Source of the DNA: Acidimicrobiia bacterium
GTDB lineage: Bacteria; Actinomycetota; Acidimicrobiia; IMCC26256
Reading direction: 5' to 3'
Length of the DNA: 19,980 nt
Assembly (NCBI GenBank): GCA_023262065.1
Contig: JALRDW010000024.1
Location: 1 to 19,980, forward strand
Both the position numbers and the translations under genes were made by a program. This document shows positions 1 to 5,273 of this stretch, piece by piece. The notes under the pieces are model-generated. The model was not told the origin of the DNA and ran no database searches. It worked only from the letters and a program-made list of their open reading frames with translations. The first letter of the stretch is position 1. Each line of letters begins with the position of its first letter.

Positions 1-5
1 GCCGT

Positions 6-175
6 CACGATGCTCACGACCTGGCGCCCCGATGGGCCGGCTCCGCCGACCGGGCCAGGTCAGCCCCCCGCCACCGCCGGCACGATGCTCACGACCTGGC
101 GCCCCGATGGGCCGGCTCCGCCGACCGGGCCAGGTCAGCCCCCCGCCACCGCCGGCACGATGCTCACGACCTGGC
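6..175. repeat. 75-bp tandem repeat (about 2.3 copies) over the 3' end of the sulfur-carrier gene
   Basis: Copies begin at 6, 81 and 156. The first two are complete and identical, and the third matches through 175. The period is 75 bp (25 codons). Read on the minus strand, each unit holds the last 12 codons plus TGA of the neighbouring carrier gene (tail QVVSIVPAVAGG), followed by 36 bp of downstream sequence. The frame stays open between the successive stops. The leftmost copy diverges at position 5, so its Gly-Gly tail is not seen. The lack of any mismatch points to a recent duplication or an assembly artefact. Confidence 0.95.
110..131 (-). terminator. Possible terminator hairpin after the sulfur-carrier gene
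   Basis: Plus-strand arms GGCCGG (110-115) and CCGGGCC (125-131) pair with one bulged base around a 9-nt loop. The hairpin starts 4 nt after the carrier stop codon. No T-tract follows. An identical copy lies at 35-56 in the next repeat unit. Function is inferred from position and stem only. Confidence 0.35.
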
Positions 176-407
176 CGGGCGCCACGACCGAGTCGACGCC
201 GTCGAGGAACCGGATGTCCTCCTCGGCGACGAAGATGTTCACGAACCGGCGCAGCGACCCGTCGGGCTCGGCGATGCGCTCGCCGAACCCGGGGTGGGCC
301 GCGTCGAGCGCGGCGAGGAGCTCGCGGACCGTCGAGCCCTCGAGGTCCACCTCGGCGGCCCCGCCGGTGAGCTCGCGCAGCTGGGTGGGGATGCGGACGA
401 CGGTCAT
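135..407 (-). CDS. CysO/MoaD/ThiS-type ubiquitin-like sulfur-carrier protein
   Basis: This 90-residue protein has the length of small sulfur carriers. It ends in the Gly-Gly tail (PAVAGG) that an E1-like enzyme would adenylate and convert to a thiocarboxylate. The block RFVNIFVAEEDIRF followed by the tail VSIVPAVAGG resembles, from memory, Mycobacterium tuberculosis CysO more than E. coli MoaD. CysO supplies sulfur to the PLP enzyme CysM. The start ATG overlaps the stop of the upstream threonine-synthase-like gene (ATGA, 404-407), which implies translational coupling and suggests that enzyme is its partner. The pair lies under a SAM riboswitch, which points to sulfur amino acid metabolism rather than molybdopterin. 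Its 3' end is part of the 75-bp tandem repeat. No E1-like or JAB-peptidase partner lies in the window. Confidence 0.9.
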   Translation of the reverse strand: MTVVRIPTQLRELTGGAAEVDLEGSTVRELLAALDAAHPGFGERIAEPDGSLRRFVNIFVAEEDIRFLDGVDSVVAPGQVVSIVPAVAGG

Positions 408-1648
408 CGGGTGCTCTCCTGGAGTGCGGGGAAGGCGTCGTGGAACGCCTCGATGGTCGGACGGATGGTGGCGGTCGGGCCGACGACCTCGGCGACCGCG
501 TCGAGCGTCTTGAGGCCGTGGCCCGTGATGTACACGACGACGCGCTCGTCGGGACGGATCACGCCGGACGCTGCGAGCCGCTGGAGCGTCGCGATGGTCA
601 CACCCCCCGCGGTCTCGGCGAAGATCCCCTCCGTGCGCGCGAGCAGCCGGATGCCCTCGACGATCTCGTCGTCGGTGACCGCGGCCATGCCACCACCGGT
701 CGACCGCACTGCGTCGATCGCGAAGTAGCCATCGGCCGGGTTCCCGATGGCGAGCGACTTGGCGATCGTGTCCGGCTTCACCGGCTTGATGACGTCACGC
801 CCCTCGAGGAACGCGCTCGCCACCGGTGAGCACCCGAGGGCCTGGGCCCCCGAGACGCGCACCTCGGGCGCCTCGTCGAGGAGACCGACCCGGTGCAGCT
901 CGTGGAAGCCCTTATGGATCTTGGTCAACTGGGATCCGCTCGCGATCGGCACGACCACGTGGTCCGGCGTCGTCCAGCCGAGTTGCTCGGCCGTCTCGAA
1001 GGCGAGGGTCTTGGAGCCCTCGGCGTAGTACGGCCGCACGTTCACGTTCACGAACGCCCACGGGTAGGTGCCGGCCAGTTCGGCGCACAGGCGGTTGACG
1101 TCGTCGTAGTTGCCGTCGACCGCGACGAGGTTCCCGCCGTAGACCGCCGTGGTGACGATCTTGCCCGCCTCCAGGTTCGCCGGGACGAACACGTAGGACT
1201 GGAGTCCGGCCCGTGCGGCGTGCGCGGCGACCGAGTTCGCGAGGTTGCCGGTCGATGCGCACGCCGCGACCTCGAACCCGAACTCGAGCGCCTTGGCCAG
1301 CGCGACGTTCACGACGCGGTCCTTGAACGAGTTCGTCGGGTTGAGGGTGTCGTTCTTGACCCACACCTCGCCGAGACCGAGTTCGGCGGCGAGCCGTTCC
1401 GCCCGCACGAGCGGCGTGAACCCGGCACCGAGGTCGATGTCGGGGTGGTGGTCCGAGGGCAGGAGGTCCGCGTACCGCCAGATGTTGGCGGGACCGTGCG
1501 CGATGCGCTCCCGGGAGGTCGCAGCACGGATCGCGTCGTAGTCGTACGCGACCTCGAGCGGACCGAAGCACCACGAGCAGGTGTACGAGGGCTCGATCGG
1601 GTACTCCCGACCGCACTCCCGACACTTGAGTGCCGACACGAACGCCAC
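404..1648 (-). CDS. thrC: Threonine-synthase-like PLP enzyme (fold type II) with N-terminal zinc ribbon
   Basis: A 414-residue enzyme. Start GTG at 1648 is chosen because GAGGAG lies 6 nt upstream and the protein then begins just before the zinc-ribbon cysteines C9, C12, C24 and C27. The likely PLP lysine is K109 in NPTNSFKDR. CASTGNLANS follows, and a Ser/Gly-rich segment (IASGSQLTKIHKGF) stands where typical ThrC proteins have a GNAGN-type phosphate loop. The C-terminal VYITGHGLK block is typical of the family. Threonine synthase converts O-phosphohomoserine to threonine. This one departs from the usual NPTGSFKDR and GNAGN motifs. A SAM riboswitch precedes it and it is coupled to a CysO-like carrier, so thiocarboxylate-dependent homocysteine synthesis from the same substrate is a real alternative. 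Family assignment is secure; the acceptor (water or sulfur) is not. Confidence 0.88.
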   Translation of the reverse strand: MAFVSALKCRECGREYPIEPSYTCSWCFGPLEVAYDYDAIRAATSRERIAHGPANIWRYADLLPSDHHPDIDLGAGFTPLVRAERLAAELGLGEVWVKNDTLNPTNSFKDRVVNVALAKALEFGFEVAACASTGNLANSVAAHAARAGLQSYVFVPANLEAGKIVTTAVYGGNLVAVDGNYDDVNRLCAELAGTYPWAFVNVNVRPYYAEGSKTLAFETAEQLGWTTPDHVVVPIASGSQLTKIHKGFHELHRVGLLDEAPEVRVSGAQALGCSPVASAFLEGRDVIKPVKPDTIAKSLAIGNPADGYFAIDAVRSTGGGMAAVTDDEIVEGIRLLARTEGIFAETAGGVTIATLQRLAASGVIRPDERVVVYITGHGLKTLDAVAEVVGPTATIRPTIEAFHDAFPALQESTR

Positions 1649-1653
1649 GGATC

Positions 1654-1726
1654 TCTCCTCATCCTCCGTCGGTCGCCGGACCTCGGCGGCCTGTCTCGAC
1701 GCGCTCGTGAGCGCCTCGAGCGGAGG
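1654..1726 (-). promoter_or_regulatory. Candidate riboswitch expression platform (Shine-Dalgarno sequestration)
   Basis: On the minus strand CCTCCG (plus 1721-1726), just downstream of the aptamer, is exactly complementary to CGGAGG (plus 1663-1668). That segment directly precedes GAGGAG (plus 1655-1660), the ribosome binding site of the thrC-like gene. A competing GGGG-TT-CCCC hairpin overlaps the first arm. No T-tract terminator is seen, so control at translation initiation is more likely than attenuation. This is inferred from base pairing alone. Confidence 0.4.
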
Positions 1727-1750
1727 GGGGAACCCCGTCGCTCTCGGGCT

Positions 1751-1861
1751 GCTCATCGTTCGGGCATTGGCACCTGGCGCTCCGGGCGGTCCGATGGACC
1801 ACTCCGGGGTGCTGGTTGCCGCGGCGTCACAGGGCCCGTCCCTCGGCCGCTCTCGATGAGC
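1751..1861 (-). promoter_or_regulatory. SAM-I-clan (S-box) riboswitch aptamer lacking P4
   Basis: The minus-strand RNA shows the S-box core in order: P1 5' strand GCTCATCG (1861-1854), AGAG, the P2/kink-turn block GAGGGAC...GGCCC...TGA, GGCAACC, a P3 hairpin (GGTCC-ATC-GGACC inside CCGG...CCGG), GGTGCCAAT, and GAACGATGAGC closing P1 (CGATGAGC, 1758-1751). P1 is 8 perfect base pairs. In standard SAM-I RNAs a P4 hairpin lies between the CC of J3/4 and the GAAAGAT segment. Here only a few bases remain. A CCCG...CGGG hairpin lies about 2 nt after P1. It controls the thrC-like/sulfur-carrier operon, normally by switching off when SAM is high. Confidence 0.9.
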
Positions 1862-1879
1862 GCGTGTGGTGCGGGAGAG

Positions 1880-1943: not shown

Positions 1944-2876
1944 GTGACCGTCCTCCCGCTCCCGCGGCACCACGGCGACTACCCGATCGAGGCCCTCGTC
2001 GAGGCCCGGGCGGCCACCGGCCTCACCGTCTCCGTCTGCCTCCCCGCGCGCAACGAGGCGGCCACGGTCGGACAGATCGTCGCGACGGTCCGGCGGCGCC
2101 TCGTGGAGCGTCACGCCCTCGTCGACGAGGTGGTCGTCATCGACGACGGCTCCACCGACCTCACCGCCGAGGCCGCGGCGTGGGAGGGGGCCCGGGTGGT
2201 GCCCGAGGCCTCGATCCTCCCCGAGACCGGACCCGGAACGGGCAAGGGCAACGCGATGTGGAAGTCGCTCCACGTGTGCCGCGGCGACATCATCTGCTGG
2301 GTCGACGCCGACATCAGGAACTTCGAGGAGCACTTCGTCACCGGCCTCATCGGCCCGCTGCTGACCCAGCCCGAGACCGGGTTCGTCAAGGGCTTCTACC
2401 GGCGACCGCTGCACGGGGAGCCCTCGGGCGGGGGCCGGGTCACCGAACTCGTCGCCCGCCCGCTGATCTCGCTGTTGTTCCCGGCGATCGCGCGCTTCGT
2501 GCAGCCGCTGGCCGGCGAGTACGCAGGGCGGCGCGAGATCCTGGAGTCCATCCCGTTCGTGGAGGGGTGGGGGGTCGAGTTCGGCATGCTCGTGGACATC
2601 CTCGAGCGCTACGGCGCCGGATCCATCGCCCAGGTCGACCTCGGCGTGCGCGAGCACCGCAACCGTCCACTCGACCAGCTCGCGCTCCAGGCGACCGCGA
2701 TCATGGCGACCGCGCTGCGTCGGGCCGGGGTCGACCGCGAGACGGTCACCGCCCCCGAGCTCATCCGGTACACGGAGGGCTACGACCTCGAGCGCATCGC
2801 CGTCGAGTCCCGGGAGCGTCCGCCGATGGTGGACGTCACCGCCTACCGCACCGCTCGCGGGCGCGACATCGCCTGA
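1944..2876 (+). CDS. gpgS: Glucosyl-3-phosphoglycerate synthase
   Basis: This 310-residue GT-A, GT81-family glycosyltransferase transfers glucose from NDP-glucose to 3-phosphoglycerate. That is the first step to glucosylglycerate and, in mycobacteria, to methylglucose lipopolysaccharides. Visible motifs: PARNE (34-38) and DDGSTD (67-72) of the nucleotide-binding half, GTGKGNAMWKS (98-108), the metal-binding DAD (121-123), GGGRVTEL (162-169), GEYAGRRE (191-198) and VREHRN (235-240). The GTG start follows a -10 box by 9 nt and has no ribosome binding site, as in leaderless mRNAs. The next gene, convergent, is a glycerate kinase, which fits glycerate or glucosylglycerate turnover. No dedicated GpgP phosphatase is adjacent. 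Confidence 0.93.
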   Translation: MTVLPLPRHHGDYPIEALVEARAATGLTVSVCLPARNEAATVGQIVATVRRRLVERHALVDEVVVIDDGSTDLTAEAAAWEGARVVPEASILPETGPGTGKGNAMWKSLHVCRGDIICWVDADIRNFEEHFVTGLIGPLLTQPETGFVKGFYRRPLHGEPSGGGRVTELVARPLISLLFPAIARFVQPLAGEYAGRREILESIPFVEGWGVEFGMLVDILERYGAGSIAQVDLGVREHRNRPLDQLALQATAIMATALRRAGVDRETVTAPELIRYTEGYDLERIAVESRERPPMVDVTAYRTARGRDIA

Positions 2877-4025: not shown

Positions 4026-5273
4026 GTGCTCGAACGGGTCCCCCTCCTCGACAAGGAACTCGCCGACTACGCCACGATCATCGGCGACGAGGCGGTCGAG
4101 CGCATCCGCGACGCCGCCCGCGTGGTCGACGGCGCACGCGTCCTGCACGTGAGCGCCACCCCCTACGGGGGCGGGGTGGCCGAGCTCCTCGCGACGCACG
4201 TGCCGCTGCTCCGGAGTGTCGGGGTCGACGCGGACTGGCAGGTCATTCACGGGAGCGACGAGTTCTTCGGCGTCACCAAGAACGTGCACAACGCGTTGCA
4301 GGGCGCGGGTGAACCGTTCGACGACCGATCCCGGCACGTGTACCTCGAGAAGGTGCTCGAGAACACGCTCCTGCTCGAGGGGGACTACGACTTCGTGGTC
4401 ATCCACGACCCGCAGCCCGCGGCGATGCGGACCTTCCGGGACCAGGCCCCGTCGCCGAACGCCGGGGCGAAGTGGATCTGGCGCTGCCACATCGACCTCA
4501 CCGACGCCCGCCCGGACGTGTGGGACTTCTTCCTCCCGCACGTCGCCCAGTACGACGCGTCGGTGTGGACGATGCCCGGCTTCGTCCCCGCCTCGATGCC
4601 GGCCGGCGGGGTGCACATCGCACCGCCCTGCATCGATCCGCTCTCGGTGAAGAACCTCGAGCTGCCGGACCCGTTCGTCACCGAGATCTGCCGGCAGTAC
4701 GGCATCGACACGGATCGCCCGATGCTCGTGCAGGTGAGCCGGTTCGACCCGTGGAAGGACCCGCTCGGCGTCCTCGAGGCCTACCGGATCGTGCGGGAGG
4801 AGATCCCCGACCTCCAGCTCGTGCTCGCAGGCTCGATGGCGACCGACGACCCTGAGGGCTTCCACGTGTGGGAGACCGTCGATGCCGCCCGGGCCGGTGA
4901 GCGGGACGTCCACCTGCTGTCGAACATCCAGCAGGTGGGGAACGTCCAGATCAACGCGTTCCAACGGGCGGCCGACGTCGTCGTGCAGAAGTCGCTGCGC
5001 GAGGGGTTCGGCCTCACGGTCGCCGAGGCCCTCTGGAAGGGCCGCCCGGTGCTCGGCGGGAACGTCGGCGGGATCGTGCTGCAGATCCGTGACGGCGTCG
5101 ACGGCCACCTCGTCTCCTCGGTCGAGGAGACCGCCGCCCGGGCCCTCGAACTGCTGCGGGCCCCGGATCACGCCGACGCCCTCGGGGCGAACGGTCGGGA
5201 GCACGTCCGCTCCAACTTCCTGTCGACCCGCGAGCTCGAGGACTGGCTCACTCTGTTCGGCTCACTCGGCTGA
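4026..5273 (+). CDS. treT: Trehalose glycosyltransferring synthase TreT (GT4)
   Basis: This 415-residue GT-B enzyme resembles TreT of Thermococcales and Rubrobacter, which joins NDP-glucose and glucose directly to trehalose. Motifs along the protein: HVSATPYGGGVAELL (41-55), DEFFGVTKNVHNALQG (78-93), VIHDPQPAAM (125-134), RCHIDL (153-158), QVSRFDPWKD (236-245), HLLSN (296-300), and the GT4 EX7E segment EGFGLTVAE (326-334). The GTG start is supported by GGAGG at 4015-4019, 6 nt upstream, one of the clearest ribosome binding sites in the window. Only 4 bp separate its stop from the GT20 gene, so the two are one operon. It offers a phosphate-independent, potentially reversible trehalose route beside OtsA/OtsB. 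Confidence 0.9.
   Translation: MLERVPLLDKELADYATIIGDEAVERIRDAARVVDGARVLHVSATPYGGGVAELLATHVPLLRSVGVDADWQVIHGSDEFFGVTKNVHNALQGAGEPFDDRSRHVYLEKVLENTLLLEGDYDFVVIHDPQPAAMRTFRDQAPSPNAGAKWIWRCHIDLTDARPDVWDFFLPHVAQYDASVWTMPGFVPASMPAGGVHIAPPCIDPLSVKNLELPDPFVTEICRQYGIDTDRPMLVQVSRFDPWKDPLGVLEAYRIVREEIPDLQLVLAGSMATDDPEGFHVWETVDAARAGERDVHLLSNIQQVGNVQINAFQRAADVVVQKSLREGFGLTVAEALWKGRPVLGGNVGGIVLQIRDGVDGHLVSSVEETAARALELLRAPDHADALGANGREHVRSNFLSTRELEDWLTLFGSLG

What the first reader, a model, noticed from the sequence alone, without database searches (positions are those of the whole stretch)
135..1861. SAM riboswitch controlling a divergent ThrC coupled to a CysO-like carrier: possible thiocarboxylate route to homocysteine
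Seen: a SAM aptamer, then a threonine-synthase-like enzyme whose stop overlaps the start of a carrier ending in PAVAGG. Known: CysM of M. tuberculosis, a fold-type-II PLP enzyme, uses thiocarboxylated CysO with O-phosphoserine to make cysteine; Wolinella uses a protein thiocarboxylate for homocysteine; plants make homocysteine precursors from O-phosphohomoserine. Inference: this enzyme uses O-phosphohomoserine plus thiocarboxylated carrier to give homocysteine. Switching off true threonine synthesis when SAM is plentiful would be counter-productive, whereas switching off homocysteine synthesis makes sense. The NPTNSFKDR and ASGSQL motifs depart from typical ThrC (NPTGSFKDR, GNAGN).
Basis: partly seen in the sequence, partly recalled or inferred. 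Interest (0 to 1): 0.8.

Follow-up and report, generated by a model that had tools for sequence, protein, structure and literature searches.

The report
SAM-switched homocysteine synthase with sulfur carrier
A gene that databases call threonine synthase, paired with a small sulfur-carrying protein and switched by a SAM-sensing RNA, is most probably a recently described homocysteine (methionine precursor) synthase, and it may explain how bacteria such as Acidimicrobium ferrooxidans make methionine without the textbook genes.

Summary
A SAM-I riboswitch (1862-1750, 63 bits) precedes a ThrC-family gene (1648-404) whose stop overlaps (ATGA) the start of a ThiS/MoaD-type carrier (407-135) ending in AVAGG. 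The set is conserved: riboswitch in 50 of 50 related loci examined (0 of 20 canonical thrC loci), carrier in 47 of 50 (the other 3 cut by contig ends). The enzyme forms a clade apart from canonical ThrC; 47 of 51 genomes with it have a second ThrC-family match. It is enriched in genomes without a full-strength PF01053 hit (MetB/MetY/MetZ): 17 of 51 versus 3 of 97; none of those 17 has MetX, MetA or DUF39.

The window is a new member of that kind, named threonine synthase by NCBIfam. Going further: the set occurs in a genome whose length equals that of A. ferrooxidans, which Price et al. (2018) listed as lacking every known homocysteine route; an Aquificota genome (they listed Aquifex) carries the enzyme too. 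No catalysis was tested, and threonine synthesis as a second activity remains open.

The parts
1750..1862 (-). SAM-I (S-box) riboswitch aptamer in the leader of the enzyme gene
   Evidence: Rfam RF00162, 63.0 bits, gathering score 44.4; 88.8 bits with a model of 27 sequences that includes this one
404..1648 (-). MetM-type enzyme: ThrC-family PLP fold-type II protein with an N-terminal CxxC...CxxC ribbon; predicted O-phosphohomoserine-dependent homocysteine synthase
   Evidence: NF006050 304.0 and TIGR00260 295.9 bits; PF00291 249.8 bits; clade separate from canonical ThrC; loop and neighbouring motifs unlike canonical ThrC
135..407 (-). MetO-type sulfur carrier (ThiS/MoaD family) ending in AVAGG, start overlapping the enzyme's stop (ATGA)
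   Evidence: PF02597 59 bits; nearest solved chain 3dwg_C, E 1.7e-18; overlap
1649..1749 (-). leader between aptamer and start codon; expression platform not resolved
   Evidence: predicted to fold into a long hairpin covering the ribosome-binding region, but such pairing is not higher than in 7 canonical thrC leaders

Best explanation
This is a SAM-repressed metM-metO operon. The carrier (MetO type) is adenylated and thiocarboxylated at its C-terminal Gly-Gly by a MoeB-type E1 encoded elsewhere. The ThrC-derived enzyme (MetM type) binds O-phosphohomoserine, eliminates its phosphate on PLP, and instead of letting water add at C-beta (threonine) lets the thiocarboxylate sulfur attack C-gamma, giving homocysteine. 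High SAM closes the riboswitch and shuts the operon, as expected for methionine supply. Shown here: the genes, the riboswitch, their conservation, the separate clade, the paralogy with canonical ThrC, and the pattern of missing standard genes. Inferred: thiocarboxylation, substrate, site of attack, direction of the switch.
For: Riboswitch in 50 of 50 related loci (20/20, 18/18, 12/12) and in none of 20 canonical thrC loci (13 by Rfam; 7 by model R1). Carrier hit in 47 of 50 loci; the 3 without end with the contig. 17 of 51 enzyme-bearing relatives have no PF01053 hit better than 1e-20, against 3 of 97 others (Fisher p 8.5e-7; first genome of each genus 11/34 vs 1/64, p 2.3e-5, data). All 17 lack MetX, MetA and DUF39. 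Strong E1 in 19 of 20 genomes tested; the own E1 is a MoeB with rhodanese. Motifs differ from 20 canonical ThrC. Literature: MetM is a homocysteine synthase in Streptomyces with an upstream SAM riboswitch and a metO gene for a carrier (PMC12172450 passages). Window protein is 59% identical to a Microcystis novacekii homologue; that paper gives M. aeruginosa ThrC 51.6% to S. albulus MetM.
Against: Same-genus G001 also has MetX beside a MetY-length PF01053 protein, and the own MAG has MetX, so the route may be auxiliary here. 34 of 51 enzyme-bearing genomes do have a strong PF01053 protein, and 21 of 51 have MetX. The 1e-20 line is mine: by Pfam's own low cut-off (27 bits) 142 of 149 genomes pass. 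Four of the 51 (G002, G004, G079, G139) show one protein over the thrC cut-off; G079 is 99% complete. G069, one of the 17, has no strong E1 hit; G009, another, was seen only as an enzyme fragment. A cyanobacterial family member made threonine in vitro and its authors doubt that it acts fully as MetM in cells. S. albulus MetM itself was not compared. Related genomes make the p-values optimistic.
Confidence: 0.88

Rival explanations
1. Bifunctional enzyme: makes threonine from O-phosphohomoserine and water, and homocysteine when charged carrier is present.
For: Microcystis ThrC is reported to make threonine from O-phosphohomoserine in vitro (PMC12172450); the window protein is 59% identical to a Microcystis counterpart. 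G002, G004, G079 (99% complete) and G139 have only one protein over the TIGR00260 cut-off, and the own MAG shows no second ThrC.
Against: 47 of 51 enzyme-bearing relatives have at least two ThrC-family matches, and all 12 of the genomes G040 and G149-G159 have two over the thrC cut-off, so the enzyme is rarely needed for threonine. The riboswitch would cut threonine supply when SAM is high.
Confidence: 0.2
2. Cysteine synthase of the CysM/CysO kind: O-phosphoserine plus thiocarboxylated carrier gives cysteine.
For: Carrier is nearest in the PDB to 3dwg_C, recalled as CysO; S-box control of cysteine genes is known in Bacillus (recalled).
Against: Enzyme belongs to the thrC family, TIGR00260 295.9 bits; cysKM 47.2 bits against a cut-off of 344.15. 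The own MAG has a separate, contig-truncated CysM/CysK-type protein. It would leave the 17 genomes without MetX, MetA, DUF39 and full-strength PF01053 no known homocysteine source.
Confidence: 0.04
3. An ordinary threonine synthase with an unrelated carrier next door.
For: NCBIfam names it threonine synthase.
Against: Riboswitch 50/50 and carrier 47/50; separate clade; loop GNAGN replaced; second ThrC-family protein in 47 of 51 relatives with it.
Confidence: 0.03

Closest known systems
MetM/MetO route of Streptomyces (Hasebe et al. 2024, AEM 90:e01247-24; not held, known here through passages of PMC12172450 and recall)
   Same: ThrC-like PLP enzyme, adjacent sulfur carrier, SAM riboswitch upstream, O-phosphohomoserine as proposed substrate
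   Different: Locus of another class of Actinomycetota; MetX present in the same genome; no biochemistry; direct sequence comparison with S. albulus MetM not made
CysM/CysO of Mycobacterium tuberculosis (recalled)
   Same: PLP fold-type II enzyme using a thiocarboxylated carrier; the carrier's nearest solved relative is 3dwg_C, recalled as CysO
   Different: Enzyme is ThrC-like, not CysM-like; predicted product homocysteine, not cysteine
Wolinella protein-thiocarboxylate route to homocysteine (Krishnamoorthy and Begley 2011; seen only as a reference in PMC5764234)
   Same: Protein thiocarboxylate as sulfur source for homocysteine
   Different: That route uses a MetY-type (PF01053) enzyme (recalled); here a ThrC-type enzyme
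Canonical threonine synthase (e.g. PDB 1uim, Thermus by recall)
   Same: Fold and PLP-lysine motif; 217.4 bits
   Different: In 18 of 20 canonical relatives no N-terminal ribbon at all; GNAGN loop and STGNT instead of ASGS-type loops and STGNL

Membership tests
MetM/MetO homocysteine synthase system | ThrC-homologous PLP fold-II enzyme forming a clade apart from canonical ThrC | tested here: met
   SH-aLRT 97 branch separates 97 rows including the window from 8 canonical or 39%-group rows (quick tree, 105 of 158 sequences)
MetM/MetO homocysteine synthase system | Downstream sulfur carrier with Gly-Gly tail | tested here: met
   407-135, AVAGG end
MetM/MetO homocysteine synthase system | SAM riboswitch upstream (as reported for S. 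albulus) | tested here: met
   RF00162 63.0 bits
MetM/MetO homocysteine synthase system | Activating E1 available in the genome | tested here: met
   NF006444 572.8 bits, cut-off 449, in G000:C246
MetM/MetO homocysteine synthase system | Separate canonical ThrC in the same genome | tested here: inconclusive
   Not found in the 79% complete MAG; present in same-genus G001
MetM/MetO homocysteine synthase system | Direct similarity to S. albulus MetM and MetO | not tested
   Sequences not in hand; a Microcystis homologue used as a bridge
MetM/MetO homocysteine synthase system | Converts O-phosphohomoserine and thiocarboxylated carrier to homocysteine | not testable with these tools
   needs an enzyme assay
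Canonical threonine synthase | GNAGN loop | tested here: not met
   ASGSQLT in window; 20 of 20 canonical relatives have GNAGN
CysM/CysO | CysM-family enzyme | tested here: not met
   TIGR01136 cysKM 47.2 bits, cut-off 344.15
CysM/CysO | CysO-like carrier | tested here: met
   3dwg_C E 1.7e-18
SAM-I riboswitch RF00162 | score over the Rfam gathering score | tested here: met
   63.0 vs 44.4 bits

The most novel reading that the evidence does not exclude
The metM-metO set is the missing homocysteine pathway that Price et al. (2018) said remained to be discovered in Acidimicrobium ferrooxidans and, with a carrier acting from elsewhere, in Aquificota. More broadly it is a phylum-spanning methionine route (Actinomycetota, Nitrospirota, Verrucomicrobiota, Planctomycetota, Chloroflexota, perhaps Cyanobacteriota) hidden under the name threonine synthase, with lineage-specific variants: carrier not adjacent (Micromonosporaceae), carrier fused to a NIL domain, or carrier with extra residues after Gly-Gly that would have to be trimmed.
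Probability: 0.72. Interest if true: 0.6.

Novelty: new member of a known kind. Interest (0 to 1): 0.5.

Why it matters
NCBIfam names this enzyme threonine synthase, so genomes that rely on it can look like methionine auxotrophs. Recognising it would correct pathway predictions in several phyla and offers a directly testable answer to a stated gap: how A. ferrooxidans makes homocysteine. It also gives a natural pair of paralogues (ThrC and MetM type) acting, if the reading is right, on one substrate, for studying how water addition at C-beta is exchanged for sulfur addition at C-gamma.

Tried and rejected
Expression platform: the leader folds with the ribosome-binding region paired, but the mean pairing probability in 42 metM-type leaders (0.63) was lower than in 7 canonical thrC leaders (0.80), so the test does not support translational control (9 of 51 metM-type and 13 of 20 canonical leaders gave no start site with a Shine-Dalgarno of 4 bases or more and were dropped).

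NPTNSFKDR as a marker: rejected. Strict absence of the standard route in the window's own genome: rejected, MetX is present. Lack of PF01053 in the own MAG was not used as evidence, because same-genus G001 has the gene. MetX was judged by E-value: the family's 500-bit cut-off is met by 0 of 149 genomes and by none of the 14 controls. A riboswitch at metX-metY of G001: none found with model R1. Papers: PMC12172450, PMC5764234 and PMC3035218 were seen as passages only; Hasebe 2024 was not held, and its content is taken from PMC12172450 and from recall. The ten literature searches were made; none listed a paper that I saw linking MetM to A. ferrooxidans, in a library that lacks most subscription papers. 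No structure was predicted.

Full report
The window is one whole contig (G000:C53, 19,980 bases) of a draft genome of 2.10 Mb in 300 contigs, 79.28% complete. Near its left end, reading on the minus strand, lie a SAM-I riboswitch aptamer at 1862-1750 (63.0 bits, gathering score 44.4), a 414-residue ThrC-family gene at 1648-404, and a 90-residue ThiS-family carrier at 407-135 ending in AVAGG. The stop of the enzyme and the start of the carrier overlap as ATGA. The carrier's closest solved relative is 3dwg_C (E 1.7e-18), listed as a 9.5 kDa culture filtrate antigen, which I recall as CysO; next is a ThiS/MoaD family protein, 4n6e_B. The enzyme's closest solved relatives are threonine synthases, best 217.4 bits.

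Conservation. I searched 148 relatives at least 90% complete, plus the own genome, with the enzyme sequence. 51 of the 148 have a close counterpart (58% identity or more). I fetched the neighbourhoods of 50 of these 51 (L049-L098); the remaining one, G009, showed only a 147-residue piece. A carrier HMM found the carrier beside the enzyme in 47 of 50; in the other three (L086, L096, L098) the contig ends at the enzyme, and in L097 the carrier frame looks broken. Rfam found the SAM riboswitch in 50 of 50 (20/20, 18/18, 12/12). None of 20 canonical thrC neighbourhoods had it: 13 by Rfam and 7 by a model built from 27 riboswitches. None of these 20 had the carrier.

The enzyme is not canonical ThrC. 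Same-genus G001, one contig and 99% complete, has both the close counterpart (88% identity) and a shorter 40% one; 47 of the 51 have at least two ThrC-family matches at E 1e-25 or better, and G002, G004, G079 and G139 have one. A second look with TIGR00260 left those four with one protein over the cut-off each; G079 is 99% complete. In a quick tree of 105 of 158 sequences the window's family is set apart from canonical ThrC and from another 39%-identity group by a branch with SH-aLRT 97 (the long-branched L099 joins at its base and its place is unsure). Over alignment columns, 20 of 20 canonical proteins have the loop GNAGN and STGNT, whereas 0 of 48 riboswitch-linked proteins have GNAGN and 48 of 48 have STGNL. 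By recall these columns lie around the cofactor and the substrate phosphate in threonine synthase, so a rewiring of the step after phosphate loss is a reasonable but untested reading.

Genome-wide pattern. In 20 of the 148 relatives PF01053 (MetB, MetY, MetZ and kin) gives no hit better than 1e-20; their best E-values run from 8.1e-15 to 7.7e-4, while the other genomes' best hits are 4.8e-74 or better. This line is mine: by Pfam's own 27-bit cut-off 142 of 149 genomes pass. Of the 20, 17 carry the enzyme: 17 of 51 against 3 of 97 (p 8.5e-7; first genome of each genus, 11 of 34 against 1 of 64, p 2.3e-5). The 17 fall in 9 families. Relatedness makes these p-values optimistic. The three without the enzyme are G013 and G017, which have MetA, and G104, which has MetX. 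MetX is missing in 30 of 51 enzyme-bearing and 23 of 97 other genomes (p 3.2e-5; first of each genus 18 of 34 against 17 of 64, p 0.014, data), including all 17. MetA is found in 1 of those 30 (G138) and in none of the 17. DUF39 is found in 0 of 32 genomes tested, which include all 30. A MoeB/ThiF-type E1 with E below 1e-80 is in 19 of 20 genomes tested, G069 being the exception; the own E1 is a rhodanese-fused MoeB, 572.8 bits. Against this, 34 of 51 enzyme-bearing genomes do have a strong PF01053 protein and 21 have MetX, and the window's own genome has MetX (G000:C114).

Known already. A 2025 paper on Microcystis ThrC (PMC12172450; passages read) reports that Hasebe and colleagues (2024) identified a homocysteine synthase, MetM, in Streptomyces, with an upstream SAM riboswitch and homologues in cyanobacteria, and compares the carrier gene beside Microcystis thrC with metO. 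The original was not held. From recall its abstract states that thiocarboxylated MetO and MetM convert O-phosphohomoserine to homocysteine. The 2025 paper also reports threonine synthase activity for the Microcystis protein, notes that its gene lacks the riboswitch, and doubts that it works fully as MetM in cells, which keeps a bifunctional enzyme possible. The window protein is 59% identical to a Microcystis novacekii counterpart and 60% to one from Nocardioides that has both riboswitch and carrier.

Spread. The 80 include Actinomycetota, Cyanobacteriota, Nitrospirota, Chloroflexota, Verrucomicrobiota, Planctomycetota and Aquificota. They are not fully independent of the relatives above: L161 has the contig length and riboswitch place of L082 (G031). 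A carrier lies within 800 bases in 62 of 80 and elsewhere in the locus in 6 more; 12 show none, of which L202 is cut by the contig end. The riboswitch model hits 40 of 80 at E below 1e-7; a few of the others, such as L192 and L203, hold almost no upstream DNA. Rfam confirmed 15 of the 16 loci I gave it, the miss being the Aquificota locus L151. None of the 21 cyanobacterial loci was hit. In 11 genomes behind named loci plus G040, 12 of 12 have two proteins over the thrC cut-off, and 6 of 12 have no PF01053 hit at 1e-15. For cyanobacteria the DUF39 route is another possible source: Synechococcus elongatus rings for it as a control, and I did not test the named cyanobacteria.

The open gap. Price and colleagues (PMC5764234, passages) wrote that at least one more homocysteine pathway remained to be discovered, naming Aquifex aeolicus, Pyrolobus fumarii and Acidimicrobium ferrooxidans. 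The contig of G040 that holds the enzyme is 2,158,157 bases long, exactly the published genome length of A. ferrooxidans (PMC3035218); I take G040 to be that organism. It has the enzyme, the carrier ending AVAGG, the riboswitch at 60.0 bits, a second thrC-family protein and an E1. It has no MetX (best 1.3e-5), no MetA, no DUF39, and one PF01053 protein at E 4.8e-74 whose best match, below that model's cut-off, is cystathionine gamma-lyase; that protein's activity is unknown. A Hydrogenobacter draft genome, in the Aquificota, has the enzyme, a second ThrC and no PF01053 hit at 1e-15, though no carrier beside the enzyme. So the metM-metO set is a strong candidate for the missing route in A. ferrooxidans and a partial one for Aquificota. 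Searches listed no paper that appeared to say so.

Verdict. The mechanism is published, so the window holds a new member of a known kind. It is useful because it places the system in a class with a documented gap, shows near-complete co-conservation of riboswitch, enzyme and carrier there, and shows that NCBIfam release 20 still calls the enzyme threonine synthase.

Noticed in passing
window 1-175: A 75-base unit repeated 2.3 times at 99% duplicates the 3' end of the carrier gene at the very end of the contig; probably an assembly artefact.
   Followed up: partly
G000:C276:2382-2473 (L018): A second SAM riboswitch in the same genome (58 bits); no methionine-related NCBIfam match in the frames tested around it, so its target is unknown.
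   Followed up: partly
L170 5261-5782, L172 5256-5780, L179 5140-5769: Carriers beside the enzyme are fused to a NIL domain after the Gly-Gly, so the tail would have to be cut before thiocarboxylation.
   Followed up: partly
L164 5292-6332: Carrier fused to a carboxymuconolactone decarboxylase domain in a Chloroflexi MAG.
   Followed up: no
L066, L052, L053, L056, L060, L064, L072, L076, L077, L090, L094: 11 of 49 carriers have 1 to 7 residues after Gly-Gly, recalling Wolinella HcyS, which by recall needs a peptidase; JAB peptidase not searched.
   Followed up: no
L190, L197, L199, L200, L201; also L180, L191: Micromonosporaceae loci, and two other Actinomycetota loci, have riboswitch and enzyme but no carrier found next door.
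   Followed up: partly
L099 (G142): A 44% identical ThrC-family gene with the carrier but without the riboswitch; a very long branch in the tree.
   Followed up: no
G000:C28:1015-1179 and C13:13428-13658: Two further ThiS-family carriers, one beside a TtuA-like gene and one MoaD-like (both by eye); several carriers may share one strong E1.
   Followed up: no
G079: A 99% complete genome in which the riboswitch-linked enzyme is the only protein over the thrC cut-off; a place to test whether it also makes threonine.
   Followed up: no
window 1944-2876 and 4026-5273: Neighbouring genes match glucosyl-3-phosphoglycerate synthase (376.6 bits, over cut-off) and, below cut-off, TreT trehalose synthase.
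   Followed up: no
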